Source of the DNA: Albula goreensis
Lineage: Eukaryota > Chordata > Actinopteri > Albuliformes > Albulidae
Length of the DNA: 64,000 nt
NCBI GenBank assembly: GCA_022829145.1
Contig: CM040760.1
Coordinates: 25,519,602 to 25,583,601 of the forward strand
Direction of reading: 5' to 3'
In this document: piece after piece, positions 31,060 through 62,080 of the stretch
Layout of the letters: every line of letters starts with the position of its first letter
How positions within the stretch are numbered: position 1 is the stretch's first letter
Made by a program: the position numbers and the translations under genes
Notes under the pieces: model-generated
Told to the model about the DNA's origin: nothing
Database searches by the model: none
Seen by the model: only the letters and a program-made list of their open reading frames with translations

Positions 31060-32826
31060 GATGTTCCAAACGGGCGATTGCTTGATTACCAATCTTGGAG
31101 ACAGTGAGCCTCTTACTTATGAGCTGCTCGACCGCAAAATGACGGCGTTTTCCTTAGTGACTGCCCATTTCCTGGCAACGCCTGTTGATCATCATACCAA
31201 GGTCTCACTGTTATGATACAGCCAGTGATAAGAGAAATATCCAGTAAATGTAGCAAGCATGTGAAAGCAACGAAAAAGTGGATGGCAGAATAGAATGTAT
31301 GCACTGTTGCGCATGTAACTAAGGAGGATGTGTGGAAATATCCCATGCGTTAGAACACATGTTGCACATAATTTTAACCACAATTCCCTTTAACCGTCAT
31401 CTGGATTACGGCGTGAATGCTTTCAAATATAATTGGTTACATTTGTTTATTTAACATGTTTGGTAAACAAGTTCTCACCTTCTTGGCATGATAGGGTTAT
31501 GGGGTGGTGTGGCTGCTTAGCTTCAGCAGCGTGACAAGAGAAGGGTACAAATGTACAAAAACAATGTAAAAAACGAATATTCTTGACTCAGAATAGATAT
31601 GGTGTTATATTTTATTCCGACAGAACATTTGCATCCTATACAAATTGTGTGCACCTGCACCATTTGATTTATTTGATCTTTCATGAACACACCGAGACTT
31701 TCTTCACTTCCTCTTTACAGGAGAGAGGTGGCCAACAGCAGACATTAAAAACATGACGTTTCATTTATTACATTAAACATGAAAATAAACAACAGCATGT
31801 TATCAATCAGCCCATGCTGTCTACAGTCACACTAATCCAGAGCAGAATTTTGAAGCACAGAGTTTTGAAGAAAGTGAAGGGCACTGGTGCATCCAGCTGA
31901 AGTGAACTTTGTTGGAAAACGGCTGGAAAATAGTCTCACAGAGGCCAGATTCCTGTTTCTGTCACATCACTGTGCTGTTTAAGACCAACAGCTACATGTT
32001 TCCGTAAATATCACCACCATCCTGCAGAATCGTTTAAATACAAAAACAAAAGAGCAAAAAGATGAGTAGCAGAAGTAAATCATCGTTCTCATTTCTTGCT
32101 AAATACCTGAATGTGCAAAGAAATGCCCTTAAAAGGGCAAAACCAGCTTCAAACATCACAAACACACCTGTACCCATCACACACACCACATCATACACAC
32201 TGTGAAACACACCCCAACACACACTCCACATCATACACACTGTGAAACACACATCACACACACCCCTCATCACAAGCCTAGCTAGTGCTGCATAGTTAAT
32301 TGTAATTTGCAGTTTTTGTTTTTGCAGTTAATTGAGAGAGACTGCATTCACTGCATTGCATTGAATGCACAATATTTAGCAAAGACACTGCCTCAAATCA
32401 AGCATTAATAGCTGCTGTATTCATTACACACTCACTGTGAAGACTACTGAATATATGAAAAACTGCTGTCAATTCTGTGACATTCTTTCATTGATTTATA
32501 GGTGCTCAAAAGTCAATGAGAAACATTTGGGGATTATCTTGTTTTTTTTGTACACAATTTTCATTAAAATGTATCGAAACCTTGAGTCTCTGGTTCATGT
32601 TGCCGATATTATAAATAATTGCAAGCAAACTGTAAGCAAAGGGATGGCTGTTAGCATTTTTTTTCTGTCACGCTGCCTCGCCATTGGCGCTTTGAAGTCC
32701 ACACAGCTCTGTAAGACCCATAGCTATTGGCCACTCACATCATTTCTGCACTTTGCCGGATATGGAGGACGCAGGTTGCTAGAGAAGGAAAAAAAACAGG
32801 CTAAAGTTCTTCTCCAGTACACACAC
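31060..32826. other. Intergenic region
   Basis: No supported gene. A frame of about 150 codons on the plus strand (32437-32895) has no recognisable motif and biased, repeat-like composition. Positions 32150-32270 contain short CACACACC/CATCATACACAC repeats. Confidence 0.4.
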
Positions 32827-33261: not shown

Positions 33262-36200
33262 CTAGAAGAGAAGGTGAAGTACAGAAGAAAGGGCAGTGGA
33301 CATAAAGGTGGAGATGGGGAGGGATGCTGAAGCTGAGAGCATGATGGGACAGAAAGTACGTGCCAAGTTAATACCCGCATAGAAAACCGGATCAGACAGA
33401 TTGGGGTATGTGAGTGAGGGGTTGTCTGAAAATACTTCCCCCAAACTTCTGTTTTAACAAACTCCAATTAGTGAAGTATTATGGTTCAGGAGCAGGCCAT
33501 ATTATTCAAAGGTTGCAGGTTCAATTTTCAGGCATGGCACAGCCATTGTGCCCTTACCTGAACGGCTTTAGTCAATATTCAGATATATAAATGTACAGAG
33601 AAATAAAAGATTTAAACTGCGCTGTTTGCTTGGAGTGAAGGTGTCAGCTTAAATGCCACCTGGTTCTTACACAGTGATGACATTTTTTTTCACGTTGGGT
33701 ATGCTTTAAACACATGTTAATGATTTTAAAGAGTACAAACTACAAGTAACAGAACAAATGCGTAAGCCATATGATATTAAAATCATATTTAAAAACCAGG
33801 AAAACTTACATTTTAGGAGGTGGGAGGCAGGGTTTTGAGACGCCATGGCTGTTGCTTGATAAGTTCTCATTATTAGCCCTGTGAGAATGAAACGTTTCGG
33901 CATGTAAGCCCGATGGTGAAAGCCATTTCCTCAGAAACAGTGTGAGCGCTGGTTTACACTTCCACAGTTTATTCTGGCTTATTTTTATAGCCAGCAGACC
34001 ACACTGCACAAAGTTTTGATTCAATCTTGTGTCCGTTTGCAGCAAAAAAAAACTGATGACACATTTTCACTAGAGTTTTAACTGCAGCTGCAGTTCATGA
34101 CTGTATCACACCTGTCAGCTGAAATTAATTCCTGGTCTTAGTAAAGAAGAGGCATAGCGCTGGGTGGTATGACTTTAAAATCACATTGTGATTTTTTTTA
34201 GGTAGAATGACAATACAATATATGACATATCTCAATACAGCTTATATAATTCTGTTTAAGGTCTTAACCACATGGAAAGCCACACATTGAAGTCTCAAGC
34301 ATGTATTGCCTGAAATCAAGCTCAGTTTTTTTTTAACCCTCCTATGATGTTCAGGTCAAATCTGACCGATTTACAACTTCATTAGGTCATTAAAATTTTT
34401 TATTTTTTTCCTGATTACCCCACGGCCTGATGATATCCTCCATACTAGATAGTTGAACATATAAAATTTCTGATCACCACATTCTCTGAATTTCCAGTAG
34501 TTTAATCAACTTTGTAGCACCTGTGGTGTTCCCGGTCAAAAGTGACCGGCATAGATAATGCATGGGTAATACTAGATTATTTTCATTTCTTTCCATCCAC
34601 ACCAACAAATAGACACACACACACATACACACACACATATCCATGTGAATCACACATTTCAGATTTAAGAATTAGGTGTCATTTATGGGAACCTGTCTCT
34701 TTTCACGCTTATGTGACCATCCTTCCACAGGTGCCCAATTTTGCTACACTAAATAATTATATATTTCCAAACTAAACAATTAGGTGATTGTTATGGCAAC
34801 CTGTCTCTTTCCCATGCTTTTGTGCCCTATCCCCTCACATAAACCACTTCACAGAATAAACTGTGTATCAGATCTTCTCACAGACACCCTATATAAACCT
34901 TTATTTGTGCCTTGCTCTCATTTTACTCTGTGACCACAATGAGCAGGAAATTTACAGTCAGAGAGGCTCTGGACCTAATTATTGAGCCAGAGGAAGAGAA
35001 GATCAAAGTTGAACCGGAGATAGAGGAGGATGTGTCAGAACGTGAGGACAACGATCCTGATTTTGATCCAGACCTTTATGATACTCACCAGTCAACTGAT
35101 GATGAAGCCCCTGAGGAAGAGGTACGTGGAGAAGAGGTACCTGGAGAAGAGGCCCCTGAGGTGACATTCCAGTCAAAGGATGGCAGCTTGGTCTGGCATT
35201 CTTCCTCCCAGGACAGAGGAGGCAGGACAAGAGTGGAAAATATTCCAAGGATGACACCGGGGCCAACACGTTATGCAATATCTCGTGTGGATGACGTCAA
35301 GTCCAGCTTTCAACTCTTTGTACCAGAGTCCATGGACGAAATTATAGTGGACATGACAAACTTGGAGGGGAGGCGTGTGTTTGGGGATGCGTGGAGAGCA
35401 CTGGACAAGGTAGACCTCCAAGCCTACTTTGGTCTGTTGATTCTATCGGGTGTATATCGATCAAACAAGGAGGCTACCCACAGTCTGTGGGATGCAGAGC
35501 CTGGGAGGCCTATATTCCGGTCAAATATGTCCTTACAACAGTTTCATGTTCTCTCAAGAATTATCCGATTCGATAACAGAGAAACGCGACCTGTCCGCTG
35601 GCAAAATGACAAACTGGCTGCCATCAGGAACATATGGGACAGGTGGGTGGAGCGCCTCCCACTGATGTACAATCCAGGTGCTGAAGTGACAGTCGACCAA
35701 CGCCTGGTCCCTTTCAGAGGCCGCTGCCCCTTCAAGCAGTACATGCCAATCAAACCAGGCAAGTATGGGATGAAAATCTGGGCAGCATGTGATGCCAGGA
35801 ACAGCTATGCCTGGAATATGCAGGTCTACACAGGGAGACCTACTGATGGAAGGCCAGAAAAACCCATGGCATGCGTGTTGTGCTGGACATGACAGTTGGT
35901 CTTAAAAGGCATAATGTTACATGTGACAACTTTTTCACATCATATGGACTTGGTCAGGAGCTGCTGAAACGAAAGCTCACCATGGTGGGGACAGTGAGAA
36001 GAAACAGGCCTGAGCTTCCGCTGGCGTTGGTGTTGACCAGAGGTAGAGAGGCACTCTTGTCTAATTTGCTTTCACTGACACACACATTCTTGTGTCGTAT
36101 GTTCCCACGAAGAATAGAAATGCCATCTGGATGAGCACACTGAACAAAGACAATGCTGTCAGCACCACGGAACACAGAAAGCCCCATATCATCCAGGACT

Positions 36201-39200
36201 ACAACAGCAACAAAGGAGGTGTTGACATCTCTATTCTTCTAATTTCTATTGTTTCTAATTTCTTATTTATTGTTTCTGTCAGGGCGCAGTATGAACTCAA
36301 GTGCAGACAGGGATGAGATGAACCAGAGTTTATTAAGAGGGGCAAATCCAAAAACAGAGTCAAAAACAGGCACAGGGTCAAACCAGAAGAGCACAGTGTC
36401 AGGGCCAAAAACAGAATCCAAAGCAGTAGTCGAAAACAGGCAAAGTTCGAACCAGGTAAACACAGCAATCAGGCAGAGACACAATCCAAAATCAGAAATC
36501 GGGGAAAACAGGCAAGAATCAAAACAGGCAGGTAGAACAGGAAAAGGCTCGTAGCGCAACTGATCACAGGGAATACAGAGACGAACTCGCACAGAACAAA
36601 CACAAGACAGGGTTTAAATGCATAGACTAACGAGCCAACGAGACACAGGTGCACAATAGGGCAGGTGAAACAAATGGGTAATCAACTGGGAAGGTAACAA
36701 GGAGGGCGGGGCAGACACAAGGGGAAATGAAAACAAAAGCACATGGACAGGGAACACAAAAACAAAAACACAGCATCAGACAGCATTACTGACAGTTTCT
36801 TTCATCGCAGCTTACAGGTACATACACCTGCGAGTGAATGACAGCACGTTGGCCTGTGGCGGTATTCCACAACATCCTGGATGTGCCTGCGTATAATGCA
36901 TATGAGGTGAGGATGGTGAGCAACCCAGCCTGGAATCAGGGGAAATGCTTCAAGAGAAGTCTCTTCCTGGAAGAGCTCGGGAAAGCTTTAGTGACACCGC
37001 TCATTCAGCAACAACAGCACCTTCCCCGCACTCCAGCCTCCTTTAGTCTGGTTAGGAGTGTACAAGCCCCAGCCATTGCCCCAGGCCCCCCCTCTCCCCC
37101 CATCAAAGATAGGGGCAAAAGAGAAAGAGATGCCAGCTCTGTGCCCCAAGAGACAATAAAACAAGTCTCACCTGCTACAAATGTGGTGCCTTTGTTTGCA
37201 AGGCACACTCCAACCTGATTGTCCAATGCCACTCCTGTGTGTGAACACATACACACACGCACACACGCACACACACACACCTGTTCATGTTGATTTTCTG
37301 AATATAGTCTCCATTTTGATAGTTATTATAGTTTTTTATGTTGACTTTTTGCATGTTTATTGGAGTTTTTCATTTTCATCACTAGTTGGACATCTTGTTT
37401 ACAGCATTAAAATGTGCTGAATAAAATTTGAAGATGTTTATGTTTGAATTATGTTTTTGTTTTAATGTAAGAACAGTTAAACCAGACCGGTCCAATTTGA
37501 CTGGGAACACCAAAGTAAGGGGGAAAAACGAACATAAAACAAGGACAGAGGAGGCAGAACAAGAATGTTCTCAATACAAGGGTTAAATAATAAGTCTGAT
37601 TGTTTGAATCCAAAGTTTCTTTGGATAAAAATGAGCTCCTTAAAATGACATGTCTTCTCCATGTTTGTGTACTATAAAGCCTGCACTGGAGCTGTACATG
37701 ATGAACATACAAATGATACCATTTGGACCAAGTGTTGTTGGTGGTAAAAATAAAATACACAAAAATAAAACATTGACAAAGATACACTGAATATCTTGCA
37801 ATGGCCTTTCATATTGTTAATTAGAATTATATCTGTCATATCAGCAACTCAATATATCGTCCAGCCCTAAGTTGGCATAAAATCCTGAAACAGAAACTCA
37901 TTTTTCACCTGTGCTTCCACTGTAGCCATGGAGACAGTATCACACTCACTCACCTGTACTCCACTCTGAGGGCAGCTGGCTGCTCCTGTGGCCTGCTGTA
38001 AACACACAGGTATTGCATTCATTATTTACAGCTTAATATATATATGTAACCCTACACTGACATTCAGGAAAGAAAGTGTGGAACAGTATTTAAGGATTTT
38101 GACTTGAAGCCAAAAAGGTTTAAAACCCTAGCCTGCACAGTGCTGTTGCAGTCTTAAGCCAGGTATATTTCTGTAACAGCTTCAGCAAAATGCCATTCTG
38201 TACAAACAGGTAAAATAAATAACTGTGTGTGTATGAATTATAATCTGGAGAAGGCACCAGAAAGAAGTAATGTTAATATGAACCATGGCAAGTTTTTCCT
38301 CAGCTTACCGAGAAAATCTGCTCCAAATGGACCGCCTATTAAAGTCATGAACAGAAATACATGTTATTTTTCCTCATAAATCCCAGAAGTGATTATCTCC
38401 AGGCCATATGCAATCAGCTTCAACTCAATGGCCATAGGCAATCAAATCAAAACATATCTTACACTGTCATAAATTTCTCTTTGAGCATGTTAAATTTGAT
38501 GAAACGTGTCCTGTTCAATGTGCTGTCCTCATTTAAGTTTGAGTTTTAAGGGAATTTAACTAAATTTGTTCTAAAACAGAATAACTGCTGGATTGAATCC
38601 AGCCCTTCATTATTTTTATTATTGTTATTATTATCATTAATATTATTATGAGTAGTAGTATTAGTCGTAGTAGGAGTAGTATTATTGTAAATGAGGTAAC
38701 GGTTTTGGTTATGTGCATACCTTTTATCTGGGCGCGGTGGTCTGTCTGGACAGTCACTGGCTTGTCCCCTACAGGTGCCCAAAAATCAGAACATGATCAA
38801 TGGGAAGAACATGGATGGGGCTCCCATGCTTACTCTCCAGCCAGATTTACATCCTTATTTTCTAAAAGGTGTAAAACCCTGATGTATGCTCATACTCTAG
38901 AGGCCTTTGTCATTGATGTAGCCAGCAAGATATTCAGCCACATAGCATTTAAAACATGCTTGCTAAAGTACACCCAACTGTAAAACTCGTTATTGTAACA
39001 ACTTATGTGACACCATGCACTGTACCTTTTGTCTGGGCGAGGTGGTCTGGATGGAAAATCATTGGGTTGCCTTCTGTGGATGGTGTAAAACAACACGACA
39101 TAAATGAAAAATACATTGCAGTTTTTTTTTGTGGGTGAGTGTGGTAAGAGGTTTTCATACACTTGTTGTTCAGGAATTCCTAACGTTACATATCACAAAA

Positions 39201-42200
39201 TCCCAGCTGAGGTATTGATTTGCTACAAAAATGAACTCAGCAGGCCTTTATTAGAGACAGGCTTCTGTTGGAGATGGGGTTTTATTCAATCTGACACAAC
39301 TGCACATCACACTGAAAGAATGGCCAAGCTGAATGCTGTACACTCTAAACACACAGGTATGACATGCACCCACCAAATCTCTAATATCTATGTCAAAGCA
39401 TACAAACAGGGCACAAAAAAACCACAGAAACTTCACAAATGCTTACCTGGAAAATCTACTCCATAGAGAGGCCCTGTTTATGAAATCATGAAGAACAAAT
39501 TATATATGATATGATTTACATCATGCCTCTGCTAGAATGCATCATTTTTGAGGTCGCTTTTTGATACCTTGAAGTAATTTATTAGTGGGGAGCATACCTT
39601 TTGTCTGGGCGTGGTGGTCTGCTTTGAAAGTCACCAGGAGGATCTCTGTGAATTTCATAGTGTGAGACATGGACAAAGAAAATAAGTTGCAGCATTGACA
39701 GTACAGACAGCTGCTGGGCCCTTGAGCAAGGCTATTTGCCCCACGTTGGCCCTGGGGGAATTGGCCCCTGGTTAGTCTGATCAGCTGTAGGTCGCTCAAT
39801 TGACTGTAATTTGAATTCATAATCACTTACCTGTGACCAACGTTTCCAAAATTCAGCCAGCTGGTTCTGTCCCCCTCAGGTCTCCTGCAAAAGGCCAGAC
39901 AACACACTTTACCCTCACATAAACAAGGGATCTAACTCAATAAATGACCAATTCTAAATCCATGAAACCAACAAAAATGATTTATAACATGCAACACTTC
40001 CATATAATCATGCTATTATTTTATTATTATCATATTATAACCATATTATACATTTCATTATACAGCATGAATGTTCAGGCATATGGTAAATGAATAAAAT
40101 TTTCTTGACATGATATACAGTGTGCAGCTGTGTTATAATAAGCCATTTCTGTAATGAATAATATCTACTTAATATATTAGCAAATAGAAGCAAAGATGCT
40201 TCGGCTTACATGGAAAATCTGTTCCATAGTGACCTCCTGCTTGAAAGACAGAAAGAGAAAGATTATTATTAGATTATGGGCAGCCTATTGCCTAGTGGCT
40301 AAGGCTAAGGTACATGACTGGGATCCCTGAGGTTGGTGGTTCAAGTCCCAGTCCAGCCACAGCAAGAACACCATTGCTGTTGGGCCCTTGAGCAAGGCCT
40401 TTAACCCCACATTGCCCCCAGGGGAGATTGGCCCTTGGTTAGTCTAATCAACTGTAAGTCACTTTGGATAAAAGCATCAGCTAAATGACAGTGTAGTGTA
40501 ATGTAATGTAATGTAATTATTCCAACAATGAAGTGACTTTGCAAACATCAGGCTTCCCCAGGCCCTTCCATTCAGTTTACAGCCCATTTATTACATTAAG
40601 TTACATGTAATAACATTTGGCTCAGCTGGTAGAGCACATGCCACACAAGGCCTTGGCCTTGCCACAACAGCCCAGGTTGAATCCGGCCTGGGCCCTTTGC
40701 TGCATGTCCTCTCCCCTCTCTCTCTCCTGCATTTCCTGTCTACCTCTCTACTGTAAGTGTCAAATAAAGTGGAGAAATCCCAAAAAAATATCTTTAAAAA
40801 AAAAAAAAAAAGTTACATGCATTAATATACTCACCTTTTTCCATCTGGCACCAGACTCCCCTGTCTGTCATCAGTGTGTTTCCTGTGGGTGTCAGAGGGA
40901 TGTATTTTGGTGAACGAGTTTCTAATACAGGAAATCAAATCGCTCCCACATTTACCAAGCTTTTCTTGATATATACAGATAATACAAACATAGGTAGGAT
41001 ATATGTGTAAATTATGACTAAAATATCATATGATGAAAAGCATAGTTTCACAATGTGGACAGTCCTGAGGTGAACCATGTTTAAATAAACTGTGTTGTGT
41101 GATGTAGGTAAATTTGCATGCCCTGGTAAATTCTCTCATTGGTGCTTGGAAAGCAAAATACTCCTTAGATATCTTTGCTTGGGGGTCAAAACAGAACCAT
41201 GTAATTCTTTTTGCTAAACTTTGCTGAGTGCACTTTTATTTCAGTGCAGCACTAAAGCTGTGAAAAAGCAAGACATTTTGAGAAGCTGACATCAATTAAA
41301 GCAGAGATGCTAACATTGGTGTATGGTAGCACTTCAATTATTTAGATTTGTTTCTTGATTCAAGGGGATTTTATTTGCAGAACCACATGAAAAATTACTT
41401 AAGTAGTTAAAAGACTTCAGTGATGTGCGTGTTGACCCTCTTCTCGATATTTGGCAGTCCAGATGTCCTCTTTTTGGGAAGTGAACTATCCTCCGGGTAT
41501 GATTTGTAAATTCCTAAAAATGCCCGGGATTTTGCTTTGCTCTTTCCATAGACTATATATAAACAATCTAATAAAAAGTAAAGGAATAAACTACTTGTTC
41601 CATGGCCCAGATCCAATCCGTGTATCTGTCGTGCAGAGCAGCGATGTTCGAGCTAGGGGGCGTGCTCAGCATTTCGCCAAAGGCAAGCTCTGTGTCACGC
41701 TCCGGAACACTATCATAGTGACGTAGTGCTCGTGAAAGGTCGTCTTGAAAGTAAACCGTTAACGTCTGAAACGTTAGACCAGCAGCCAAAGTTTTCGGCA
41801 AATTAATAAAACTAAAGACTTCAACTTGTTGTACCTTTGACAGCATCGCCTGTAAGTTGAACATGTTTCGTTAGAAATTAATTGTATAATTACTTGTAAT
41901 ATTTTATGTACAGACCGTGTATGTCATTTACATACTTCAGTTCTTAATTTCGCTAATCGCTAGCGTGATGCTAACCTGTGTTTTTCCGTACACAGTTTAG
42001 GTGTAGTTCATTTACAAAATGCATTTTAGTATGTACTATTCTTGTTAGTCAAATAACTTACGCTTTATCCATCTGATGTGCATTCGTTTGTGTAAAACCT
42101 GTTTGTATTTCTTTTCGCAGTTTTACTCCATCTCCAAATATTACAAATGTATTTAGCTTGGACACTAAATCTTGCCTCCCGTGCCGTTGTTTGAAAGGAG

Positions 42201-45200
42201 TTTGGCTGGATGTCAAACTGCAACCTCAGAATGGTGAGTGCGATTCAACAACAGGGAAGCTGAGAAATGATCATTTTACCTGCACCTGATAGCCCATACT
42301 ACCACACCCACAAAAAGGACCAAGACCACTGGGGATGCAACTGAGACTGGCAGAATGAAGGGAGCGAAGAAATTCTTCTTTCCTAAGCAGAGCGACAGCA
42401 CAGCAACGTCAACAGCTATCACAGTTCAGCAACACTCTCTTCTCTTCTGAGTTTAGCCATGGGGGAAATATTTCCTCCTTCCAGGGCTGAATTCTTCCAG
42501 TATGTTTCCTAACTAATAATACATTCATGTTTTGTTACTTGTTATAATTAGTTAATGATCATTATCCTTGCTGTTCACAAATACAAGAACACATTACATT
42601 TAATGAGTCATGAATTGATTACGAATGATTAAGAACGTACTCATTACTGGTTTGTATGTAGTTTTTGCAGGACCCAAAATGTTAAAAATAACCTTTTTCC
42701 TTAACTTTTAATTTACACGGGTTAGTTGGTTAATGACTGTACTGTAAAATCTGTAACATCTGGTAACATGAACAGATAAACAGGTTAATACATTACAAAC
42801 ACATTGGGCATGTTAGCCATTTATTTGTGTGAAAAAAAAAAATGTCAGGACATATATTACTCTGTTTGAAAATGAAAAGCATACCCTCCAAAGGATGCAT
42901 TTGCTTGTCTCCAATCAAATATTTAAGGACTCTAAAAATGATCTTGTAATGTACAGTCTGTTTTGACTGAATTTCTTACACCCTTAAAGAACGTAAGTGC
43001 ATTTGACTATATTTGGTACTTACTTTTTACATTGAGAGGAGCTGAACTCTCCTGCGTCTTTTTCCCCCAGAAGGTGGCGCTGCAGGTTAGTACGTCCTCA
43101 TAATTGTCCCCTGAGGGAGTGAACATCAGCGTGGAGGCGGTTTCCCACTCGCCGTTGTTTCCCTGCGTATTGTTGGTGGTGGTTTTTGCATCCTTGACAT
43201 TCCAGCTGAATGCTGGTGGGTGTGTGGGACAGGTGTGTTTGACTGAGCAGGTGACAAAGACCGTTGATCCTTCATCAATCTCCGCTGGAAGAGTGGTCAT
43301 TAGGGGTATGTTTGGAGAAGCTAAAAAAAATAAAGAAGTTACTCACAAAGGCACATATGAATATGAACAAACATTAACATACGTACATGTACATGCTCAC
43401 TCATTCACAAATACACATATGTACCTTCATACAAGCACGCAGCCACAGATACATACACAAACACAGATATGCAAATGCATATGTGAACATAGACACACAA
43501 ATACATGCACACAAAAATAATCACAAATACATGTACACACAAACACAGATATACAAATGCTGCATATTGACACACATGTACTCAAAGCCACACACAAATG
43601 TGTATGCACTCAAAAACGGATACACACACTCAGACTTACACATTAGGGACCTACAGTCAAACATACCTTTCATAATAAGAAACACACAGCTGTTGTTGAA
43701 ACGGTATTCGTCATTCCCGTTCACTGCCCGGAAACAGAACGGGCCGTTGTCAAATGCCTTGACCTGGTCGATCTCCAGGGTGCAGTTTTGCTGGCTCACC
43801 ATGCCCAGCAGCTTGGTGCGCTCTTTGAAATGATCCTTGACTCTGCTCAGGGCGTTGTGGTAGACAAACCCACCGTCCCTCGCCACCCACATCCCACTGA
43901 GCGAAGCGATGAGCTCAGGCCTGTCCTCCTGGAGGAGGCAGGGGATGACCACGCAGGACCCCGTCAGCGCACTGATCCGGGGGGACACGTTAGCAGCCCA
44001 GACGTGAACGGTTTCTAGGACAGATATCAAACATGATTTGAACATAAGAACATATAGTGATGAAAACTGGTCATTCGACACAGCTAAGCTTTCAATTCAC
44101 CTACAGTATTTTCTGAGGATATTAACAGATTTTTTATTTAATAATTTAACTTCCTTTAGAAAAAGAGTCATTATTTTAATACATTTACATATTTAGCAGA
44201 CATTCTCATCCAGAGCAAATTGCACATCTTGCATCTTTACAAACTATTCATTTATACAGCTGGATATTTACTGAAGCTGAGGAACAGTACTCACTGTAAC
44301 CTCTGAGCTAAAAGCCCAGCTCCCTAACCATTATACTACACTGTAACCTCTGAGCCACAAGCCCAGCTCCCTAACCATTACACTACACTGTAACCTCTGA
44401 GCTACAAGCCCAGCTCCCTAACCATTACACTACACTGTAACCTCTGAGCTTCAAGCCCAGATCCCTAACCATTATACTACACTGTAACCTCTGAGCTGCA
44501 CGCCCAGCTCCTAACCATTACACTACACTGTAACCTCTGAGCTACACGCCCAGCTCCCTAACCATTACACTACACTGCCACGCCTTCACATATTGACTCT
44601 GTTAAAGGTATACTCACTGCTCATGGTTTCTCTGTCTGGTTCATCAATAGGCTTCTCAGATTCTGGAGGCTCGTACTCTGTGAGGTAAAGGCATGAACAG
44701 GTTTATATCAATTTATTTGTGTTCAGAGTACAATGAGGAAATAGTATACCAAACTCACTTTTCACATGTAAATTGACAGATTTCTTTAAGTTTTTCCCGT
44801 CAGGAAATTCAGCAGTGCAGGTCAGAGATTTGTCATTGTCATCCATAGATGCAATAAACATGACACTGGACACAGTTGTCCATGCTGTCGGGCTGGTCCT
44901 CACAGTGATGCTGGAGGCGTGCATGTCCTTGTAGTTCCAGGTGAGAATGGGCCGTTTCTTTGAACAGATGTGGGACACAGAGCAGGTGATGTTTTCCACC
45001 ACCCTCCAGGAACTGTTCTGGTGTGGGACCAATACTGATCTCCCCAGCAGGGCCTAAAGAGATTTGCAAGATACCAAGCAAAGTGATGCTCATGCATTAT
45101 TACAATGAAAATAATTGACTCAGAGCTAATGAAATGCACTTAGTCTCTTTAAGGCTGGCTAGGACCCAATCAAATAAACTTATCAATAAGGCTGTCTGGG

Positions 45201-48200
45201 AGCCAATCAAATGCAGTTGCTCTGTTTTAGGCTTGCTGGGATCCAATCAAATGCAGTTCCTCTCTTTCAGGCTGGCTGGGATCCAATCAAACTCCTTACA
45301 TTCTGGATGGATGGCAAGGCCTGCTTCAGCCTGCTTGCCCCCTGGATGTTTTACGCGACAAGTCACAGTTTGGTGGTCTTCCTCAATCACCCAAGTCTGC
45401 ACCAAAGTGGTTTTCCACTTGCCGTCCTGCACTTCGGTTTCAGTAGCCTTGCCTGTCCCAGGAAGGCCAACCAGACTAAGTGTTGGAGGCGCGGCTGGGC
45501 AGGTATGGTAAGCAGTGCACTGAACGCTGATTGTTTCTCCCACCCTAGGTATGTTGCTAATCACTATTTCTGGTTTATCCACTCTATCTGTAAGAAATGA
45601 AAAGAAGAAATGGGGGTTAAGAAGTCAATCTCCAGTTGTTGAGAGCGCTAAGCGCTCAGCTGAGAACACGGCCAGCTCAGAGTGTATGGAAGCTCAACTG
45701 ATTTTTTTTCCACTTGTTGCTATGGTTTGGTCAGTAAGATCGCTCATGAGATAGCTGGCTATGTATAATTAGCTATGCTAGGTTATATTCTTAATGTAAG
45801 GCAGATTGTGGTTATTAGAGGTCATAAGAAGGTACAAAGATGATAACTGTTATGAGACTGAATATTTTCTAGATAGTGAAGTAGCGGGTGGATATGGTAA
45901 GTATATCAGCTTACCAAGTATTGCTATGATACCATGGGTTACATTGTATATCATACTAGTGATAATTATACATAGCCAGATGGCATACAAGCGATCTGAC
46001 CAGCTAACTTGTCAATTAGGAAATTATCATGTTTGCCAGCTATTTTAAAATTGTTGAGTATGTTAATGAGGAAGCCACATATGACCATGTTTGGATGTAT
46101 GCATTGATATGATGTTAGCGTTAGACACAGGAATAGCTAGCCTATGTTGCTATCTATCGTTAATCAGTTAATCAATGCCTAGCCAGAAGCCAAAAAAGTC
46201 AAGCATTTTACTACAAAAAAAAGGTAACTATGGATGCATTTATTAGGCAAAAACAGAAGGAACAGCCTTGCACTGTATGTACTTCTTCAAAAATGTATTG
46301 CAACCTGGTTAACTATGTAAACATTTTTCAACTCAGCAACTGCAAAAAACAGGTTGCTTCTGTATACTCAGCACTGAAAATATGCTCAGCTCCTGATACT
46401 TTCACAGCGTATTTTTTGGGCAATGCTTAGTTCCTATTGAAAAGAATGGGAAAACTACGCTGGCTAAAAAAAAATCAGCTTTGGTGGACACAACCCCTTA
46501 GACTAATAACAGACTTCACCTAATTTCCTTTGATAAAGTCTTGCTGTTTAAGTGGAAGGCAAGGTTGTGCTGTGCAAATCAATGTAAAATATGGAAGAGG
46601 GATGGGCTTTTCTCACCAGTCACATGGAGCTGCACAGTCTTGTCCTGATAGTTTTGTCTGTGATAGGAGGAGATGGGATTGGGGTCCACCCAGGTGTATA
46701 GCCTCAGGCCACTGTGTTTGTCCTCGAGAGGAGAGATTTTCAGGCTGCAATTCCTATCACGTGCCAATTTGTACAGAGATGTTTTCCCCTTGAAAATGGG
46801 GATGACATCATCCTGTTCGCTCTCGTCATAGACCACAGGGTACTGTCCGGGTTCGTATTTGTACCATTTAACTCTAAGGTTGGAGGGGAGGTTATTGGAA
46901 TACTCGAATCTGCAGGGGATCACCAGACAGGAGCCCCTCAGGCCAGTGATGTAGCCTGGCATCAAGAAGCTCCATCCCAAGGAAAACATGCCCCCTTTAA
47001 ACACAAAATGGCAGCCAGTTAGACGCCATGGAAACATTCTGTGATTTTGGGAGCATGAATTTTCATTGTGTCATGCAGACCCTGTAGTTATTAGCCAGAC
47101 AGTTACCTCTGAATTCTTTTAATGAAACAGAAAATTGGGTTGTCTTCTCTTTCATCACTGCATTATCTATATAACTTTATAGATTGAAATGTAAATAAAT
47201 ACACCATGAAATATTCTGAAACACTTTGCATGAAATTGCATGAAAGCCTGAAATATGCACAGATATGTCAGACTGACTCAGTGTTAATGGTCCAGACTCA
47301 AGGTTCAATGGTCAGTATGGAGGACATTACTGTGAGTCTGCTGTCGTGATTATCTCAAAACCATGTAGTGTGGAAAACCTGACTCTCTTTTTGAAACTCA
47401 CTTTTCACCTGCAGAATGATTGTCCCAGTTTGAGTCTGGCCACTTGGAAACCGGGCTGTGCAGGTGAGGGGTCTCGAATGGTCGTCAGCTCCCGCCTTGA
47501 ATGTTAAAATGGACTGGGTTCGCCAGCTTCCTGTGCCCAGTTTGGTAGGTCCAGAGCTTTCAGTTCTCATGTTTCCATAACTCCAAGTCAGATGTGGATG
47601 ATCCTTTGGGCAGGTGTATGACACCGAGCAACTCACTCTTTTCTCAACACCCTCAAGGAACTCTTTGGATGTTGGACTCAAAGTGACCGGCATGAATGAA
47701 CCTAAGAGAGACAGAGGGTTAGTATTTGACTATGTGTGTTAAAGTTTGAGTGTGTGCACTGTAAATCCAAATGTTTAATTTCAGAACATATGCTAAAAAC
47801 GTCTCTGACGCACTTTCTAAATGTGTCCCAACATTTATCTTTTTAATTAGAACAAGTTGCACAAAACACATACACATGTTTATAGGACATGTGACATCTT
47901 TACAAAACTAACACCAGTGTGTAAAGACCTAAACCTAACCACACAAACACAGTAAATGTGTATGGAGGTACTCACATGCTGCCTTTACATTGGTATTTGC
48001 AGAAGCCTTCTGGCCTCCGGGATGCTGGACTGTACAGGAGATAGGTTGGTGCTCATTCTCCACAGTCCAAGACTGTTCCAAGGTGATCTTCCACCTGTCA
48101 TTCTCCATTGTGTTACTGATCTTGGGCATCCCATGCTGGGGTGAGAGGGTCAGAGTTGGGAGGCGATCTGGACATCTGTGGTACGTGCTGCACTTGACAG

Positions 48201-50719
48201 TGATTCTTTCTCCCACCCTTCGAGATCCAATGACCTCAATCTGTGGTGGAGTTGCTTTACCTTTAAAAAAATAAATGTCAAAAATGAATACAAAGCATAT
48301 AAAAAGTAAAACAATGCAAAAAGTGCAAAGAACAACAATTATGTTATTATGAGATTTGAAAGCTATGAAAAAACATTCAAGACACTATTCTAGTCAGGCT
48401 ACCAAAGGTGTTGATTGAGGCTTTTCAATTCATAAAACAAGGTTTAACAAGGTCAAGCATAATAGATTTTTGAGGGTGAGTTTGGTCAGCAGAACAAGAG
48501 AGCTCAGATGGAATTTAGGTGAGGGTAAAACCTACACTAACATCAAAAAGTATGGTGTTACACAGAGTCATTGCCAGGAACGGTTTGCCATATCATGCAG
48601 TAGAGAGAACCATGGACTGTTTAGGTCCAGGTTTGATGCATTGCTGGTTACTTGACAAATTGCAGGTGAATGGAAAGACTACTTAGACTAAACGGTTGCT
48701 AAATAATGTTTTTATTATTTTTTATGATTTAATGTGTGCATGCTTATACTTCTAAGGTAATATGTTGAATAGTGCTTGAAAAAAGTTACACCCATCATTT
48801 CAAAGTAATTAGGTACATTTTCAGTGTGATTCAGAAAGAAAACTAAATAATAAACAGGTAAAACTTTGAATGCAAGCTACTCACCCTGCACAATGATTTT
48901 GGCAGTTTCATCATAAAAGGGGAAATAGCGGTAAGTAACATAGTCTGGGTCGACCCAGGGGTAGATCTTCTCCCCATGGTGGTCCCAAATCAGTGGATTG
49001 ATCTTCAGGCTGCAGTCCCCAGTGTAGGGATTTCCATTCAAAGATGTTTTCCATCTGAATTTGTCGATTTCGTAATCTCGGTTTTTTGGGTCATACACGA
49101 GAGGGTATCCTCTACTGACATGCTGGTACCATACCACTCTGCTCTTGTCCTTGGGAGGGTAATCTGTGTAAGAAAATCTGCAGGGGATGACTAGGCAGGA
49201 GCCCTCCATGCCCTCAATCTCTCTGGGCACTGTGACACTCCATGCACCCAAAACCGCAAGGATGAAACCTTCAGGAAAATGTCAACATTTTGACAAAACA
49301 TAAGATATAGCATATAAGATATTTCTTACTTGTTGTATCATAATGCATAATCTGAGCAGGAGATTAATTGAGTTAGTACAGGTTGAGTATCCCTTATCTG
49401 AAATGCCTAGGTCCAGAAGTGTTTCGGATTTTGGATTTTTTTTCCAGAATTTGGAATATTTGCATACACGTAAGTGTTTCCCACTCATAGGCTTTACTTG
49501 GGCGAGTCGCCAAGGTATATTAACGGCCATCCAGTTATATCTGGTGACCCATTTTAACAGTTTTATATTTTTTATCCGTCAGAAAACGACGCCATTTGGA
49601 GTTGATTAACTAGTCATCTCCCCTCTCGCCCCTGTTGGTTCTGCTTGTGCAAGAAGTGTAGCCTACACAATCGCACATGCTATGCTGTGAAACAGAGAGG
49701 TGGAGATGCAGACACAGGCTGGATTTTTTTTTTTTTGCAAAAGTAAAGCTTTTTTTCTTTTCTGCTTATTGTTTAATTATTCTCTGCCTTTGGTAGTTGC
49801 TTGGAATTCTATGAAGTGAGGCATTGCCACAACAGTCGATAAAGCTCAATCGTAACATTTCCAATACTAACACACAGCAAAGTTGTCGTGGCAACTCATC
49901 AGAGATTAGAATTTGTTTTCTCTTCAGGCTATCACAGTTAGACAGACTTAGGTTTAGCTAAGGCAGATAACCTTCCTGAGTTGTGTAATATGTGTAAAAT
50001 ATTTAAAACAAATAAAAAAGTGTTTTTAAGGTCACCTGTGGACCAGTTTGTATTTAGTTTCTTATATGTGTTTAATATATGTAATAGACCATACAGGGCG
50101 TGTCATGTCGTAGCTCAAAAAGTTTCAGATTTTGGAGCATTTCAGATTTTCGGATTAGGGATGCTCAACCTGTATAATGTTATGTCTAAATTAGACTTTG
50201 GCAGACGGTTGCAAAGTCAAATCCCACTTTACAATCATTAAAAAACCCCTTTAAATGTTGTTTAAATAGCAACACGTATTCCACATCACCAAAATCAAAA
50301 ACTTATTTTGTACAAAGTTTGGTGACGCGTATGCAAAATATTTGAAAATGTGCTCCAGTTCTTATATGTGCATGCATTAGCTAGGTTGTGGGTATGTGTA
50401 TTTATGAGTGTACATGTATGTGTGCATTTATGCATCTGTGTGTGATTGTACTGAACTTGAAATGGTAGCTCTGTGTTTACTTTCTTTAGACTCAAACCTC
50501 ATTGCACTAGTACAGATCCATTTGTGAGAACAAATGTTATGTGCATTCTTCCTAGTTCTTTAATGCAATAACAAGTTTTTGCACTGTGATTAGGCTTTGA
50601 TGGTAATCAGTTAAAACAATTAAAAATATCCATCAAAAAAAACCCAAAAATAATAAGACAGCAAAAAACTAACCTTGAAGACATAACCCAGTCAGACACA
50701 GCTGTGAGAACTGAACCAT
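33262..50719 (-). CDS. Siglec-like receptor gene B (frame broken in one Ig exon)
   Basis: Sialic-acid-lectin-type Ig receptor, tandem paralogue of gene A. Exons (minus): signal 50719-50674; V1 49268-48885; C2 48260-47976; C2 47701-47402; V2 46994-46617; C2 45587-45300; C2 45053-44759; linker 44677-44618; V3 44014-43667; C2 43320-43024; TM 42382-42280; tail 40882-40835, 40236-40210, 39884-39831, 39645-39598, 39473-39447, 39073-39026, 38768-38721, 38335-38309, 37992-37954, 33848-33810 (tentative), 33448-33262. Ectodomain introns are phase 1 and tail introns phase 2. Siglec hallmarks are the GSCLVIPC/GSCVVIPC B strands and a second C2 cysteine (HRCP, YTCP, HTCP). The last exon holds LTYPNL and VFYAGI, both ITIM-like. 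The C2 exon 45053-44759 is 295 nt against 297 in gene A: two bases are missing near 45000, shifting the frame. Without that deficit the total would be 1126 codons. The gene may be a recent pseudogene, may skip this symmetric exon, or the deficit may be a sequence error. Confidence 0.72.
33470..33650 (+). mobile_element. Degraded tRNA-derived SINE
   Basis: GGTTCAGGAGCAGG, then AAAGGTTGCAGGTTCAATTT (B-box-like), then TGCCCTTACCTGAACGGCTT and ATATATAAATGTA match the body order of the SINE family whose head makes up the 47-bp minisatellites. It lies just upstream, in transcript sense, of the last exon of Siglec-like gene B. Confidence 0.55.
34939..37244 (+). pseudogene. piggyBac transposase relic
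   Basis: The N-terminal part is open for about 318 codons from the ATG at 34939 (MSRKFTVREALDL) with an acidic N-terminus and the first catalytic aspartate in VTVDQRLVPFRG. Later segments lie in other frames: TCDNFFTSYGLG (second aspartate) near 35920, NSNKGGVD (third aspartate) near 36210-36225, then WPVAVFHNILDV near 36850. The C-terminal zinc-binding cysteine motif (CYKCGAFVCKAH ... CHSCV) ends at 37244. At least two frame changes, a stop near 36838 and the LTR insertion disable it. No intact transposase remains. Confidence 0.85.
36277..36794 (-). mobile_element. Solo LTR nested in the piggyBac element
   Basis: A 518-bp block with TGTCAG...CTGACA ends and a perfect 5-bp target duplication GTTTC on both sides (36272-36276 and 36795-36799). 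Read on the minus strand it begins TGTCAGTAATGC and has AATAAA near its downstream end, as expected of a long terminal repeat. No internal retroelement coding sequence is present, so it is a solo LTR, probably of a Ty3/Gypsy-like or related retrotransposon. The intact duplication suggests a fairly young insertion, later than that of the piggyBac host. Confidence 0.65.
39705..39815 (+). mobile_element. SINE fragment
   Basis: CTGCTGGGCCCTTGAGCAAG to GTTAGTCTGATCAGCTGTAG and GTCGCTC matches the body and tail of the SINE at 40278. The head is missing. It lies between two tail exons of Siglec-like gene B, 16 bases from one donor. Confidence 0.7.
40278..40517 (+). mobile_element. tRNA-derived SINE copy (full length)
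   Basis: Starts GGGCAGCCTATTGCCTAGTG (A box), has GGTGGTTCAAGTCCC (B box), the body CACCATTGCTGTTGGGCCCT, then TGTAAGTCACTTTGGATAAA and a TAATG-repeat tail. It is the best-preserved copy of this family in the window. Confidence 0.85.
40617..40812 (+). mobile_element. tRNA-derived SINE, second family, with poly(A)
   Basis: GGCTCAGCTGGTAGAGCACA (A box), AGGTTGAATCCGGCC (B box), then CTGCATGTCCTCTCC and an A-rich end. Same family as 27340-27532. Confidence 0.8.
41568..41864 (-). other. Unassigned 98-codon frame at a CpG-rich spot
   Basis: A frame with several in-frame ATGs (MFNLQAM...) and a composition that looks protein-like (LPKTLAAGLTFQ, ALHDRYTDWIWAMEQ). I do not recognise it. It is not in phase with the Siglec tail exons around it. 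It overlaps a CpG-rich patch with a CRE-like TGACGTAG and a good plus-strand donor (GCCT|GTAAGTT, last exon base 41851), so it may simply be the reverse of a plus-strand promoter and first exon. Confidence 0.25.
42121..42233 (+). other. Candidate plus-strand (antisense) exon
   Basis: Flanked by a strong acceptor (TTTCTTTTCGCAG before 42121) and donor (AATG|GTGAGTG). With the donor at 41851 it would make a two-exon start of a plus-strand transcript within the Siglec-like gene B tail region. An ATG at 42210 stays open to the donor. No downstream coding exon is evident. Confidence 0.3.
44181..44580. repeat. SINE body plus 47-bp minisatellite, gene B
   Basis: Positions about 44181-44287 look like a SINE body (TTTAGCAGACATTCTCATCC, CAGCTGGATATTTACTGAAG) and run straight into about six copies of the 47-bp unit (44288-44580). 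This is the only one of the three arrays still joined to SINE body sequence, and it suggests the unit arose by tandem amplification of the SINE's tRNA-like head. It lies in the intron between the linker exon and the V3 exon. Confidence 0.85.
49379..50172. mobile_element. Tigger/pogo-like non-autonomous DNA element
   Basis: Left end CAGGTTGAGTATCCCTTATC; right end, read inward, CAGGTTGAGCATCCCTAATC: about 25-bp terminal inverted repeats flanked by TA target duplications (49377-49378 and 50173-50174). Adjacent motifs GTTTCGGATTTTGGA and TTTCAGATTTTGGAGCATTT resemble Tigger-class repeats known from mammals. At 794 bp with no transposase it is a non-autonomous derivative. It sits in the first intron of Siglec-like gene B and is absent from the matching intron of gene A. 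Confidence 0.8.
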
Positions 50720-53563: not shown

Positions 53564-56500
53564 CTACACATTTCCATACACTTTGCCATTGTCAGCACAG
53601 TTGAAGTAATCATTCTGAAAAGGTTTTTTTTTTTTTTGGAAGAAATAACAGATTAATATGACATGACATTAAAGATATACGTAGGAGCTATTTTAAACAA
53701 TAACGTGCCCATTTAAGTAGGCTGCAGTCTGGGGCAGGAGGCTAATCAGATGAGCTTAGTCAATTTATGCACATATGCTACTTAATCAAAACAGACTTTA
53801 GTCTCTTTACAGCCATAAGCTGCTCAATAAGAACAGACTTTAGTCTCTTTACGGCCATAAGAATCTTAGTCAAAGCAGTCTATTTAAGGGCATGTGCTGT
53901 TCTATTTTAAAATAAAAACAACCAATTTCAAAGGACATGCTGTCTTGTCTCTGGTAAAATATAAAATATTGAAAGACACTTAATGAACTGCAAATGTCCT
54001 TAAGTTGATAAAGTGAGTTTGCTTGGGTCCTCTAGCCAATCAGTAATAATCTGAATTACCTGGACTCCAAAAGTGGGATTTGTTGCAGACAGCACAAAAA
54101 CATTACTTCCGGTCTCATTGTTGGCCCTGTGGGATAGGGGGCATTATTTGTCACTGTTTAAGATTGTTTAAGATCACACTGCTTCTTTATTGGTGCTGAA
54201 AATCTACTCTGGAAATACAAGAAAAGTACCTGTAACCAACATCCAGGTTGCTGTAGTTTCCTTGTGGTCTCCTGCAAACACAGATAATACATTTGGCATT
54301 CTAGAAACCATACATAAGATGGATAAAGAGTACAGTTGATCATCTCGCTTTAGAAAATTACTGGGTCAATTTGCTAACATGATTATTTCAGTCCTGAAAA
54401 AGGTCTACTTTTGGCAGTGTATAAATTAGTGGTAAACATAGCAGTAATTGAGAGAGTTTCTAAGATGAAAGTAAACACACAATCCCTCATTGAGATATTT
54501 TTTAAATAATGACTCTTAGTTGATCACTAATAAAGAATAAAAATTACTTTGGGTGTGCCTACAAAATAACCCATTATTAGTTATCTTGGTAATTTGACCC
54601 CTAGGTTTTGAGATGTGACGATCCATATATCCATTCTCCAACTAAACAATAGTTAATGTGACTTACTTGCACTTACTCCTCACAGACAGTAGCAGCATCC
54701 CATAGACAGCCGCTATTACCACTGCAGAGATGACTAGATTAAAGACGCAGAGTCTGTTTCCTGAGATAAAAGCCAAGCTGAATTAGATGTGCACTGACTT
54801 CGGTACTTTAGACATCAGTAACTGCTGGAGAGCTGTAAACAGAGAAGGCAAAAATCTTCCCTTTCAACCTATCCATAACCTTCAATCTGCTTCCCTTTAT
54901 CCTCCTTTGATTAAGTAAAAAAAATACCTAACAAAATAACCAACTGAGGTAAACAGTGTAAATTAGGTCTTTGAGCTAAACTTTATTGTGCGCTTCAATC
55001 AAAACTGATGTAATATTCAGATTAAAAAAAGATATTGTTCCCCTGAAGTGAAAGGATTATTCCAGGCAGTAATTCAAATCAATTTAACTAAATTTTGTTG
55101 TGTTTTACATTTTCTATTCTATAACATGAGAAAGCTACACAGTGAGATACAGTTAAGAGAAAGCGATGGGATTACTTTCCTGTTAACTACTCAAATACTT
55201 GCCATATTTGTTAATTAAACAATCTCACATTGTAGCTTTCACAACAGCACACAAACGTCAGTCAGCACAGTTCTGTGAGAATTTAAAGGGCAGAACCTTG
55301 CATGTCACTGATTTAGGACTAAGAGCAAAGAGTACAAAAATCTAAAAATGACAATAACATTTGGATAAAACAAATGCTACACAGGTTAGTTAAAATTAAA
55401 AAGCATTAAAAAGTGTATTATAGCATCTGCTAAGTGCTCAGTGCATGTAGTATAATATGTGAAGTTGTTTTGGCACTGAAAGCTGAGCTTACGTTTTACA
55501 TAAAGACGGACGCTCTTCGTTACAGGATCTATCCCATGATACTCCACTGTACAGGTGAGATTAGTGTGGTCATCCTCTTCTTTTGGGATGAAAGTGAGGA
55601 TAGACATGATCTCCCACTTTCCTTGGCCAATGTCTCTCTGCTGTATGACGGACTCCTGTTCAGTCCTACCGCTCCAGGTGAGTTTGGGAAGGTGCGACGG
55701 ACAGGTGTGATAGATGGTACAGGTAACGATGTGGGGCCTTCCCTCAACAGGATCACCGTGATGATTAACTTTGGGTTCAGGTACTTCCTCTGTGAGGAGA
55801 GAAAACACAAATGGAAGACAAAAGCCCAATCCTACGCACACTCATACACAGATAGGGACCTAAGCACCTGACAGAACACCATGTAAATGGTAAACAAAAA
55901 AAAAGGTGGGATAAAAGTGGGTAATGACTAATGTCCTTCAGTCCTGAGTATCATGGTGACAGACAGAATTGCATGCAGGTGGAATGCCTGGACATACCAA
56001 ACGTGGTGACCGTTGTACAGCTATGTTTGTAGAACTGATCATGTTCGTGAATTTTGGTCCTGAAGCAATACTCCTGGCTGTCGTTGTGTTTAACCTTGTC
56101 AATCTCCATGGAGCAGTTTTTTTCCCCAAGCCTCCCCACCAATCTTGTGCGACCTCTAAAACCTTCCTCCACCCGAGATTGATCATCATTATAGATGAAG
56201 GTTTGGGGATCTTGCTCTCTGAACCACGTTCCCCTCAGTTGTGAGTCGGCCCTTTGGATTCCCGGGTAGGTGAAAGTGCAGGGTATGACCACACAGGAGC
56301 CGGTCAGAGCTTTAATTTCAGAGACTACATCGGCCATCCATTCCTCACAGATCGCTGGATCACAATGCCCTTGGGGGAGAGGAAGGAGATTTAAGAGCAG
56401 AATTGCTACACACATGAGGAACACCTTTTCTTAAAACAATGGCTTGTGGCTGGAGGAAACTTCAAAAGCAAAACTTTCAAACTATGCTTTACTGGTACAA

Positions 56501-61776: not shown

Positions 61777-62080
61777 GGGAGGGACAGGGGGGTTGCAGTG
61801 TGTGTATTTAGGTGTGTGTGTGAGTCTTTAGACCCAAACCTCTAGTACAGATCCTTGTGAAAATGATTCATGTGTGCTTTTTTTTTTCCTTTACCATATT
61901 TAACAAGTTTTAGGCACTGTAATTATTTTTTGATGTAAATAAACAAATTACTAAATGAGAGAAGGCAAAATAACTAGATTGAAAATATTGGCCAAAGAAA
62001 GAAAGAGCATACCGGGGTAAAGAAAACAAACCTTGAAGGCACAACCCAGATAGACAGAGTTGTGCAAACCGATCCATCAT
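53564..62080 (-). CDS. Siglec-like receptor gene A (14 exons, intact)
   Basis: Type I membrane receptor of the Siglec/CD22/MAG kind, expected on leukocytes. Exons (minus): signal 62080-62032; V1 61310-60927; C2 60309-60025; C2 59700-59401; V2 58986-58609; C2 58296-58009; C2 57876-57580; linker 57498-57439; V3 56369-55998; C2 55789-55493; TM 54760-54667; tail 54271-54230, 54126-54060, 53614-53564. Total 2964 nt, 987 aa, with all phases joining. Order is V-C2-C2-V-C2-C2-linker-V-C2-TM. V domains carry the extra Siglec B-strand cysteine (GSCLVIPC, GSCVVIPC), paired with a second cysteine in C2 domains. Only V3 keeps the F-strand arginine (YCFR) that binds sialic acid in MAG/sialoadhesin; V1 and V2 have IYPWVD and LYTWVD. 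The tail has NYSNL, DYFNC and VYGNV, each with a YxN (Grb2-type) core. An in-frame methionine in V3's upstream sequence allows a shorter V3-C2-TM product, which is less likely. Confidence 0.85.
56873..57395. repeat. 47-bp minisatellite in gene A (~11 copies)
   Basis: Same unit as at 22534-23724 and 44288-44580, in the intron between the linker and V3 exons. It ends in TACACTGCCATGCCTTCACA, the same right flank as the gene B array, but its left flank is different and lacks the SINE body. Confidence 0.93.
61683..61775. repeat. (GT)n microsatellite
   Basis: About 90 bp of GT dinucleotides with one A interruption, in the first intron of Siglec-like gene A. Confidence 0.95.

What the first reader, a model, noticed from the sequence alone, without database searches (positions are those of the whole stretch)
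37954..40882. Cytoplasmic tail built from an amplified array of frame-neutral mini-exons
Three 48-nt exons encoding RPPRPDKR modules and three 27-nt exons encoding SLWxRFS modules are interspersed, all phase 2/2 with good splice sites. The proline module fits PxxxPR (CIN85/CD2AP) and class II SH3 ligands. Alternative inclusion could tune the number of SH3 docking sites on an ITIM receptor. Gene A has none, so the array probably grew after the duplication. I know of no described Siglec with such a tail.
Basis: partly seen in the sequence, partly recalled or inferred. Interest (0 to 1): 0.75.

Follow-up and report, generated by a model that had tools for sequence, protein, structure and literature searches.

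The report
Siglec-like receptor's modular mini-exon tail
In what looks like a fish genome, a receptor gene related to the sialic-acid-binding Siglec family appears to build its inner tail from nine tiny exons that can each be left out without breaking the reading frame, repeating two short motifs that might act as docking sites; it is an unusual gene layout, but no transcript or binding has been tested.

Summary
Gene B (minus strand, about 50.7-32.0 kb) has nine phase 2/2 mini-exons between its transmembrane exon and the tail end: P0, S1, X54, P1, S2, P2, P3, S3, X42. P and S copies are 67-77% identical while flanking introns are not. In pattern searches of the 932-Mb genome both motifs were found as exons only in this gene cluster. 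Neighbouring gene C, outside the window, has an S exon (22/27 identical to B's S3), so the S array is most simply older than the B/C split and lost from gene A, against 'grew after the duplication'.

The ITIM reading is not favoured: exons aligned with genes C and A lead to DIYGNM*, a YxN/YxxM site like DAP10's YINM, and the assembled 168-residue tail has no ITIM. But splice scores alone do not decide this. PxxxPR fits only P2 and P3; PxxPxK and PxPxxR fit all three P modules. P exons and S3 have the weakest splice scores.

Best reading: a docking tail ahead of a Grb2/PI3K-type tyrosine. SH3 binding and alternative splicing are inferred. Caveat: gene B has a frameshift in one Ig exon, itself skippable in frame.

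The parts
50674..50719 (-). gene B probable signal-peptide exon (MVQFSQLCLTGLCLQ...)
   Evidence: read by eye; the region aligns to gene A's 62023-62155 at 74%; inference
48885..49268 (-). gene B V-set Ig domain 1
   Evidence: second-ranked exon, chosen by homology to gene A, whose copy matches sialoadhesin
44759..45053 (-). gene B sixth Ig domain exon, with a 2-nt deletion relative to gene A (frameshift)
   Evidence: no good rescuing acceptor
44618..44677 (-). gene B spacer exon between the sixth Ig domain and V3
   Evidence: by eye
43667..44014 (-). gene B membrane-proximal V-set domain (V3), Siglec-like, keeps the F-strand Arg
   Evidence: acceptor, donor by eye; homology
43024..43320 (-). 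gene B last C2-type Ig domain
42280..42382 (-). gene B transmembrane exon, ends phase 2
40835..40882 (-). P0, 48 nt, KHTDDRQGSLVPDGK(R); relation to P1-P3 uncertain
   Evidence: 19-23 of 48 nt identical to P1-P3
40210..40236 (-). S1, 27 nt, RSLWNRFS(M)
39831..39884 (-). X54, 54 nt, RPEGDRTSWLNFGNVGH(R)
39598..39645 (-). P1, 48 nt, DPPGDFQSRPPRPDK(R)
39447..39473 (-). S2, 27 nt, ASLWSRFS(R)
39026..39073 (-). P2, 48 nt, RQPNDFPSRPPRPDK(R); lowest splice score of the nine
38721..38768 (-). P3, 48 nt, GQASDCPDRPPRPDK(R)
38309..38335 (-). S3, 27 nt, RSIWSRFS(R); closest to gene C's 27-nt S exon (22/27)
37954..37995 (-). X42, 42 nt, RPQEQPAALRVEY(R), counterpart of A's 54230-54271 and C's RPQGTPSNLGVGYR
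33810..33878 (-). ANN exon (ANNENLSSNSHGVSKPCLPPPK), phase 2/2
32739..32778 (-). penultimate tail exon (NLRPPYPAKCRND), phase 2 to 0, counterpart of gene C's NIKSSYPSKC exon
   Evidence: tblastn E 0.029; acceptor score 7.8, top 0.2%
31992..32021 (-). last coding exon, DGGDIYGNM and stop
   Evidence: string shared with gene A's last exon and gene C's; acceptor only 0.4
54230..54271 (-). gene A tail exon RPQGNYSNLDVGY(R); no S or P exon found in gene A's tail
54060..54126 (-). gene A ANN exon

Best explanation
Gene B is a Siglec-like receptor gene whose cytoplasmic tail is assembled from nine symmetric (phase 2/2) mini-exons placed before a C-terminal tyrosine module. The mini-exons alternate a tryptophan/serine module (S: PhiWxRFSR) with polar or proline-rich modules, of which three carry RPPRPDKR. 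Shown from sequence: the exons, their phase, the likeness between copies, and a colinear array with S exons in gene C. Inferred: the P modules dock SH3 domains (class II or CIN85/CD2AP type). They are repeated to raise avidity. Because the P exons have weak splice scores, their number varies between isoforms. The effector is a phosphorylated YGNM (Grb2 and/or PI3K), not an ITIM. The S modules, found in both B and C, are probably basophilic-kinase or membrane/protein-contact motifs; their role is the least certain step.
For: P copies are 71-77% and S copies 67-74% identical, while 120-nt flanks are 23-38% identical in register; of 18 flank comparisons 1 is in the top 5% of shuffles and 3 more in the top 8%. 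The RPPRPDK half differs only at synonymous sites. S3 of B and the 27-nt S exon of C match at 22/27 although the V3+C5 domains of B and C are 36% identical. The gene C exon was found with a model built from B alone, E 2e-7 in 11.8 kb. The last exons share a string in A, B and C. All 512 exon subsets stay in frame. PxxPx[KR] occurs 6 times, reached by 1 of 5000 shuffles, and PxPxxR 3 times, reached by 86 of 5000 (the copies are not independent). DAP10's YINM binds PI3K p85, and DAP10 binds Grb2 (PMC5852076, passages).
Against: There are no transcripts, and no second species was available. Gene B has a frameshift in its sixth Ig exon, so the full-length form may be dead unless that symmetric exon is skipped. 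The P modules were not found in gene C. The arginine ending RPPRPDKR is split across the exon junction and would become Ser if P3 were spliced to X42 (junction bases). The strict Px[PAV]xPR consensus has 0 matches. PxxxPR is not above composition chance (551 of 5000 shuffles reach it). The acceptors of the last exons score low: B 0.4, A -2.4, C -8.2. For whole P exons pN is not far below pS (0.17-0.27 against 0.36-0.40).
Confidence: 0.5

Rival explanations
1. The mini-exons are genuine and conserved but constitutively spliced. The tail is simply long, and its number of modules is fixed. The repeats then serve as spacers or a static multivalent site.
For: Symmetric exons also occur in the Ig part of the gene (phase 1/1), so symmetry alone does not argue for alternative splicing. 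P0, X54 and X42 have strong splice scores.
Against: The P exons and S3 have weaker summed scores (1.8-5.1) than P0, X54 and X42 (10.4-14.9). The score is a rough recalled matrix.
Confidence: 0.3
2. Gene B is a recently inactivated gene. The array is the remains of a formerly selected tail and is no longer used.
For: 2-nt deletion in the sixth Ig exon relative to gene A, with no good rescuing acceptor. Transposase pieces lie in the X42-ANN intron.
Against: The seven other Ig exons of gene B can be read open (V3 with a donor read by eye). A/B dN/dS over V1-C3, which leaves out the frameshifted exon, is 0.64. The frameshifted exon is phase 1/1 in gene A and can be skipped. An allele or assembly error is possible.
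Confidence: 0.15
3. ITIM receptor with SH3-tunable tail.
For: An LTYPNL string exists near 33.4 kb. Its in-frame acceptor 33448 scores -0.9, not far below the 0.4 of the 32021 acceptor; for this reason its odds were raised from 0.05 to 0.08.
Against: Exons aligned with genes C and A lie elsewhere and contain no ITIM. The 32778 acceptor that leads to them is in the top 0.2%. No LTYPNL-like exon of A or C was seen.
Confidence: 0.08

Closest known systems
Teleost Siglecs / CD22-like receptors
   Same: V-set domain matching sialoadhesin, MAG and CD33 with the F-strand Arg aligned; C2-type Ig domains; tyrosine motif at the tail end
   Different: Eight Ig domains with three V-sets in A and B, and a mini-exon array in the tail of B. 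PMC7226832 (passages) reports ITIMs in trout CD22 and fish MAG; PMC12837193 (passages) reports eight exons in all for tilapia CD22. Gene B's assembled tail has no ITIM and more exons in the tail alone.
PECAM-1 cytoplasmic domain
   Same: Ig-family receptor with a tail of many exons; PMC5664058 (passages) states eight alternatively spliced exons and loss of SHP-2 binding without exon 14
   Different: The passages read do not describe PECAM-1's exons as repeated copies of two modules; here they are, and no ITIM is seen.
DAP10 / CD28 YxNM tails
   Same: C-terminal YGNM is both YxN and YxxM, like YINM and YMNM (PMC5852076, passages). CD28 also has proline motifs (recalled).
   Different: Siglec-like ectodomain; proline motifs repeated by exons; no evidence of T-cell or NK function.
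CIN85/CD2AP SH3 ligands; p22phox-type PPPRP ligands
   Same: PRPDKR fits PxPxxR; RPPRP resembles SNPPPRPPA of p22phox (PMC3805583, PMC12730246, passages)
   Different: The strict Px[PAV]xPR consensus is not met; an Asp follows the core.

Membership tests
Siglec | V-set domain homologous to known Siglecs | tested here: met
   gene A V3 to sialoadhesin E 1.4e-15; gene B V3 to MAG E 9.6e-9
Siglec | Conserved F-strand arginine for sialic acid (recalled as the key residue) | tested here: met
   aligned in V3 of A and B; the two other V-sets of A and B read YPW / YTW there by eye
Siglec | Sialic acid binding | not testable with these tools
   needs a binding assay
ITIM receptor | [IVLS]xYxx[ILV] in the tail | tested here: not met
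   0 matches in the assembled 202-residue TM and tail; depends on the exon choice at the 3' end
CIN85/CD2AP ligand | PxxxPR in each module | tested here: not met
   2 of 3 P modules
CIN85/CD2AP ligand | strict Px[PAV]xPR | tested here: not met
   0 matches
class II SH3 ligand | PxxPx[KR] | tested here: met
   all 3 P modules; 6 matches in the tail; binding not tested
YxNM (DAP10/CD28-like) tail | YxN and YxxM on one tyrosine | tested here: met
   YGNM in B and C; gene A has YGNV, so only YxN
PECAM-1-like spliced tail | alternative inclusion of tail exons in transcripts | not testable with these tools
   no RNA data held

The most novel reading that the evidence does not exclude
A Siglec-like receptor uses splice-tunable exon repetition to set how many SH3-docking and S modules precede a single Grb2/PI3K-type tyrosine. 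It would be an activating or costimulatory-type Siglec tail whose signalling strength is set by exon count, arising from an old S array that gene B expanded with P modules and gene A discarded.
Probability: 0.25. Interest if true: 0.75.

Novelty: new variant of a known kind. Interest (0 to 1): 0.52.

Why it matters
It suggests a receptor tail evolving by repeating mini-exons that each carry one linear motif, with neighbouring paralogs in three states: long array (B), shorter array (C) and none found (A). If the exons are spliced variably, one gene could tune the avidity of a signalling tail. It also suggests that some Siglec-like receptors end in a YxNM-type site rather than an ITIM, which bears on whether they inhibit or activate.

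Tried and rejected
The 'ITIM exon' at 33.4 kb: set aside after finding end exons aligned with genes C and A; splice scores alone do not exclude it. Genome matches to the P pattern with two mismatches (C1, C8, two on C15): the C15 pair spells PPPLPDK, but the one read (L007) shows no Ig context by eye; the other three were not read. The one exact S match elsewhere (C10:23.77 Mb) lacks an acceptor at the right distance; two S matches with one mismatch (C2, C7) were not read. P0 as a fourth P exon: only 19-23 of 48 nt identical to P1-P3, left open. Deriving X54 and P1 from one ancestor by the shared PxGD: by eye, not tested. Viral contigs for the gene A V3 domain: nothing. Solved structures for the tail: nothing up to E 10. 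Eight 10-kb stretches downstream of Ig matches (seven on C10, one on C16; one search lists 23 matches there) gave no S or R match up to E 1 and one weak P match at E 0.4. In 144 kb of C20 the next-best S and P matches outside the exons of B and C are at E 0.11 and above. The tails of genes E and F were scanned but not read through; gene D's was read by eye and looks ordinary. No Siglec with such a tail turned up in paper searches; those listings were seen, and only the papers cited in the report were opened, as passages.
Full report
What is there. On the minus strand are two Siglec-like genes. A runs from about 62.1 to 53.5 kb and B from about 50.7 to 32.0 kb. Each has eight Ig-type exons in the order V-C-C-V-C-C-V-C, and a spacer exon (44618-44677 in B) before the third V-set. 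The membrane-proximal V domains match sialoadhesin (A, E 1.4e-15) and MAG (B, E 9.6e-9), with the F-strand Arg aligned. The gene models rest on sequence, homology and splice scores from a recalled matrix; there are no transcripts.

The array. Between B's transmembrane exon (42280-42382) and the tail end are nine exons, all phase 2/2: P0 48, S1 27, X54 54, P1 48, S2 27, P2 48, P3 48, S3 27 and X42 42 nt. Each of the 512 subsets keeps the frame to the stop. The stretch 37.9-41.0 kb holds 8 candidate phase 2/2 mini-exons at score >=7; 17 other 3.1-kb stretches average 0.5, maximum 3. The 8 are five of the nine exons, two variants of them and one extra; P1, P2, P3 and S3 fall below 7. P and S patterns are far above shuffles. 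In the whole genome the P pattern (up to 2 mismatches) has 7 matches, of which the 3 exact ones are these exons; the reversed control has 20. The S pattern (up to 1 mismatch) has 7: 5 exact, of which 3 in B, 1 in gene C and 1 elsewhere without a fitting acceptor; the control has 4. The tool scores best candidates only, so these are not exhaustive.

Selection. P1-P3 are 71-77% identical and S1-S3 67-74%, but the 120 bases on either side are only 23-38% identical in register. Of 18 flank comparisons (P0 pairs included), 1 is in the top 5% of shuffles (5 of 200) and 3 more in the top 8% (12, 13, 15 of 200). In P1-P3 the last 23 bases match at 21-22 of 23 and differ only at synonymous sites; the first 25 match at 13-16. 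For S, pS is 0.48-0.91 and pN 0.11-0.18; for whole P exons the contrast is weaker, pS 0.36-0.40 and pN 0.17-0.27. These exons are short, so the numbers are coarse.

Relatives. The cluster continues beyond the window with genes C (minus), D (plus), E (minus) and F (plus). An S model built from B alone finds an exon in C (E 2e-7 in 11.8 kb; 4.8e-6 in 144 kb). Gene C reads SP-V-C2-TM, then KRISELQSRGDNG, IWSRLSRMTR, NRPAGHRDELSPSD, RAFWSRFS, RPQGTPSNLGVGY, ANNETANISKPRCPSPD, NIKSSYPSKCGSNAG and NYADDNVYGNM* (read by eye; phases checked). This is colinear with B if B's P1-S2-P2-P3 is an insertion. B's S3 is closer to C's 27-nt S (22/27) than to B's own S1 (19) or S2 (18). On the V3+C5 tree A and C are sisters (99/99, 70% identical). 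B joins them at 88/97, below the tool's mark for firm support, with a long branch that the tool flags as unsure (34-36% identical); D-F lie outside. So the S array most simply predates the B/C split and A lost it; the P modules are known from B only. Gene conversion cannot be excluded. The recent A/B tract (83-97% identical) covers only the upstream Ig exons (V1-C3: dS 0.10, dN/dS 0.64), while V3 and C5 are near saturation.

The tail end. The finding's ITIM near 33.4 kb can be joined in frame to the ANN exon through acceptors 33448 (-0.9) or 33445 (-7.0). Instead, a C-like penultimate exon lies at 32739-32778, with an acceptor in the top 0.2%. Its tblastn E of 0.029 is of a size that also arises by chance in that search; order, phase and acceptor add to it. 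A last exon ending DIYGNM* lies at 31992-32021. Its TAYGGAAAYRTGTAGCTG string occurs in this window only there and in gene A's last exon, expected 0.01, and gene C's last exon has it too. The acceptors of these last exons are low: B 0.4, A -2.4, C -8.2, so homology carries the case. The assembled tail is 168 residues with 35 K/R and 19 D/E. It has no ITIM, one YGNM, six PxxPx[KR], three PxPxxR and two PxxxPR.

Mechanism. Most likely a docking tail: P modules as SH3 ligands in tandem, S modules of unknown contact or phosphorylation role, and a YxNM site as effector. CIN85 SH3 domains bind PxxxPR and, in the lysyl oxidase propeptide, PxpxxRh (PMC3805583, passages). Another paper gives Px[PAV]xPR and the p22phox peptide SNPPPRPPA (PMC12730246, passages). 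DAP10's YINM binds PI3K p85, and DAP10 binds Grb2 (PMC5852076, passages). PECAM-1 variants lacking one tail exon lose SHP-2 binding (PMC5664058, passages). Against shuffled tails, PxxPx[KR] is high (1 of 5000 reach it), PxPxxR fairly high (86 of 5000) and PxxxPR not (551 of 5000). P exons having weak splice scores fits variable inclusion but does not show it. The last Arg of RPPRPDKR is completed by the next exon's first base: Arg before S2, P3 and S3, but Ser if P3 joined X42.

Against. Gene B's sixth Ig exon lacks two bases present in gene A's copy, breaking the frame. The exon is symmetric in gene A and could be skipped, the deletion may be an allele or an assembly error, or the gene may be newly inactive. 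The P modules fail the strict CIN85 consensus. No second species could be searched; one scan of viral contigs found nothing.

Verdict.

Noticed in passing
window 44759-45053 vs 57580-57876: Gene B's sixth Ig exon has a 2-nt deletion relative to gene A, a frameshift in an otherwise nearly identical exon.
   Followed up: partly
window 44292-44577, 56876-57398, 22535-23722: The same 47-nt minisatellite occurs at three places; in genes A and B it sits at the edge of the recently duplicated tract, which may mark a conversion or duplication boundary.
   Followed up: no
window 34912-36131: Transposase pieces (Pfam DDE_Tnp_1_7, piggyBac-type by recall) in the X42-ANN intron of gene B, on the opposite strand, in two frames; a further open stretch at 36838-37215 gave no match.
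   Followed up: partly
window 60859-61347 and 58580-59053 (gene A), 48885-49268 and 46617-46994 (gene B): The two membrane-distal V-set domains of A and B seem by eye to lack the sialic-acid Arg (YPW / YTW), which the third V-set keeps.
   Followed up: no
window 54198-54209 and L009 about 4530-4560: The intron after the 42-nt exon in genes A and C holds AGTAGATTTTC, possibly a relic of an S exon.
   Followed up: no
G000:C10:32.55-32.87 Mb: A second cluster on another chromosome: 21 of the 33 listed matches to gene B's last Ig exon lie there.
   Followed up: partly
window 17448-17894: Guanylate-binding protein (GBP) sequence in the same window as the Siglec-like genes.
   Followed up: no
window 3626-5091: A 36-nt minisatellite of about 41 copies, open in several frames.
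   Followed up: no
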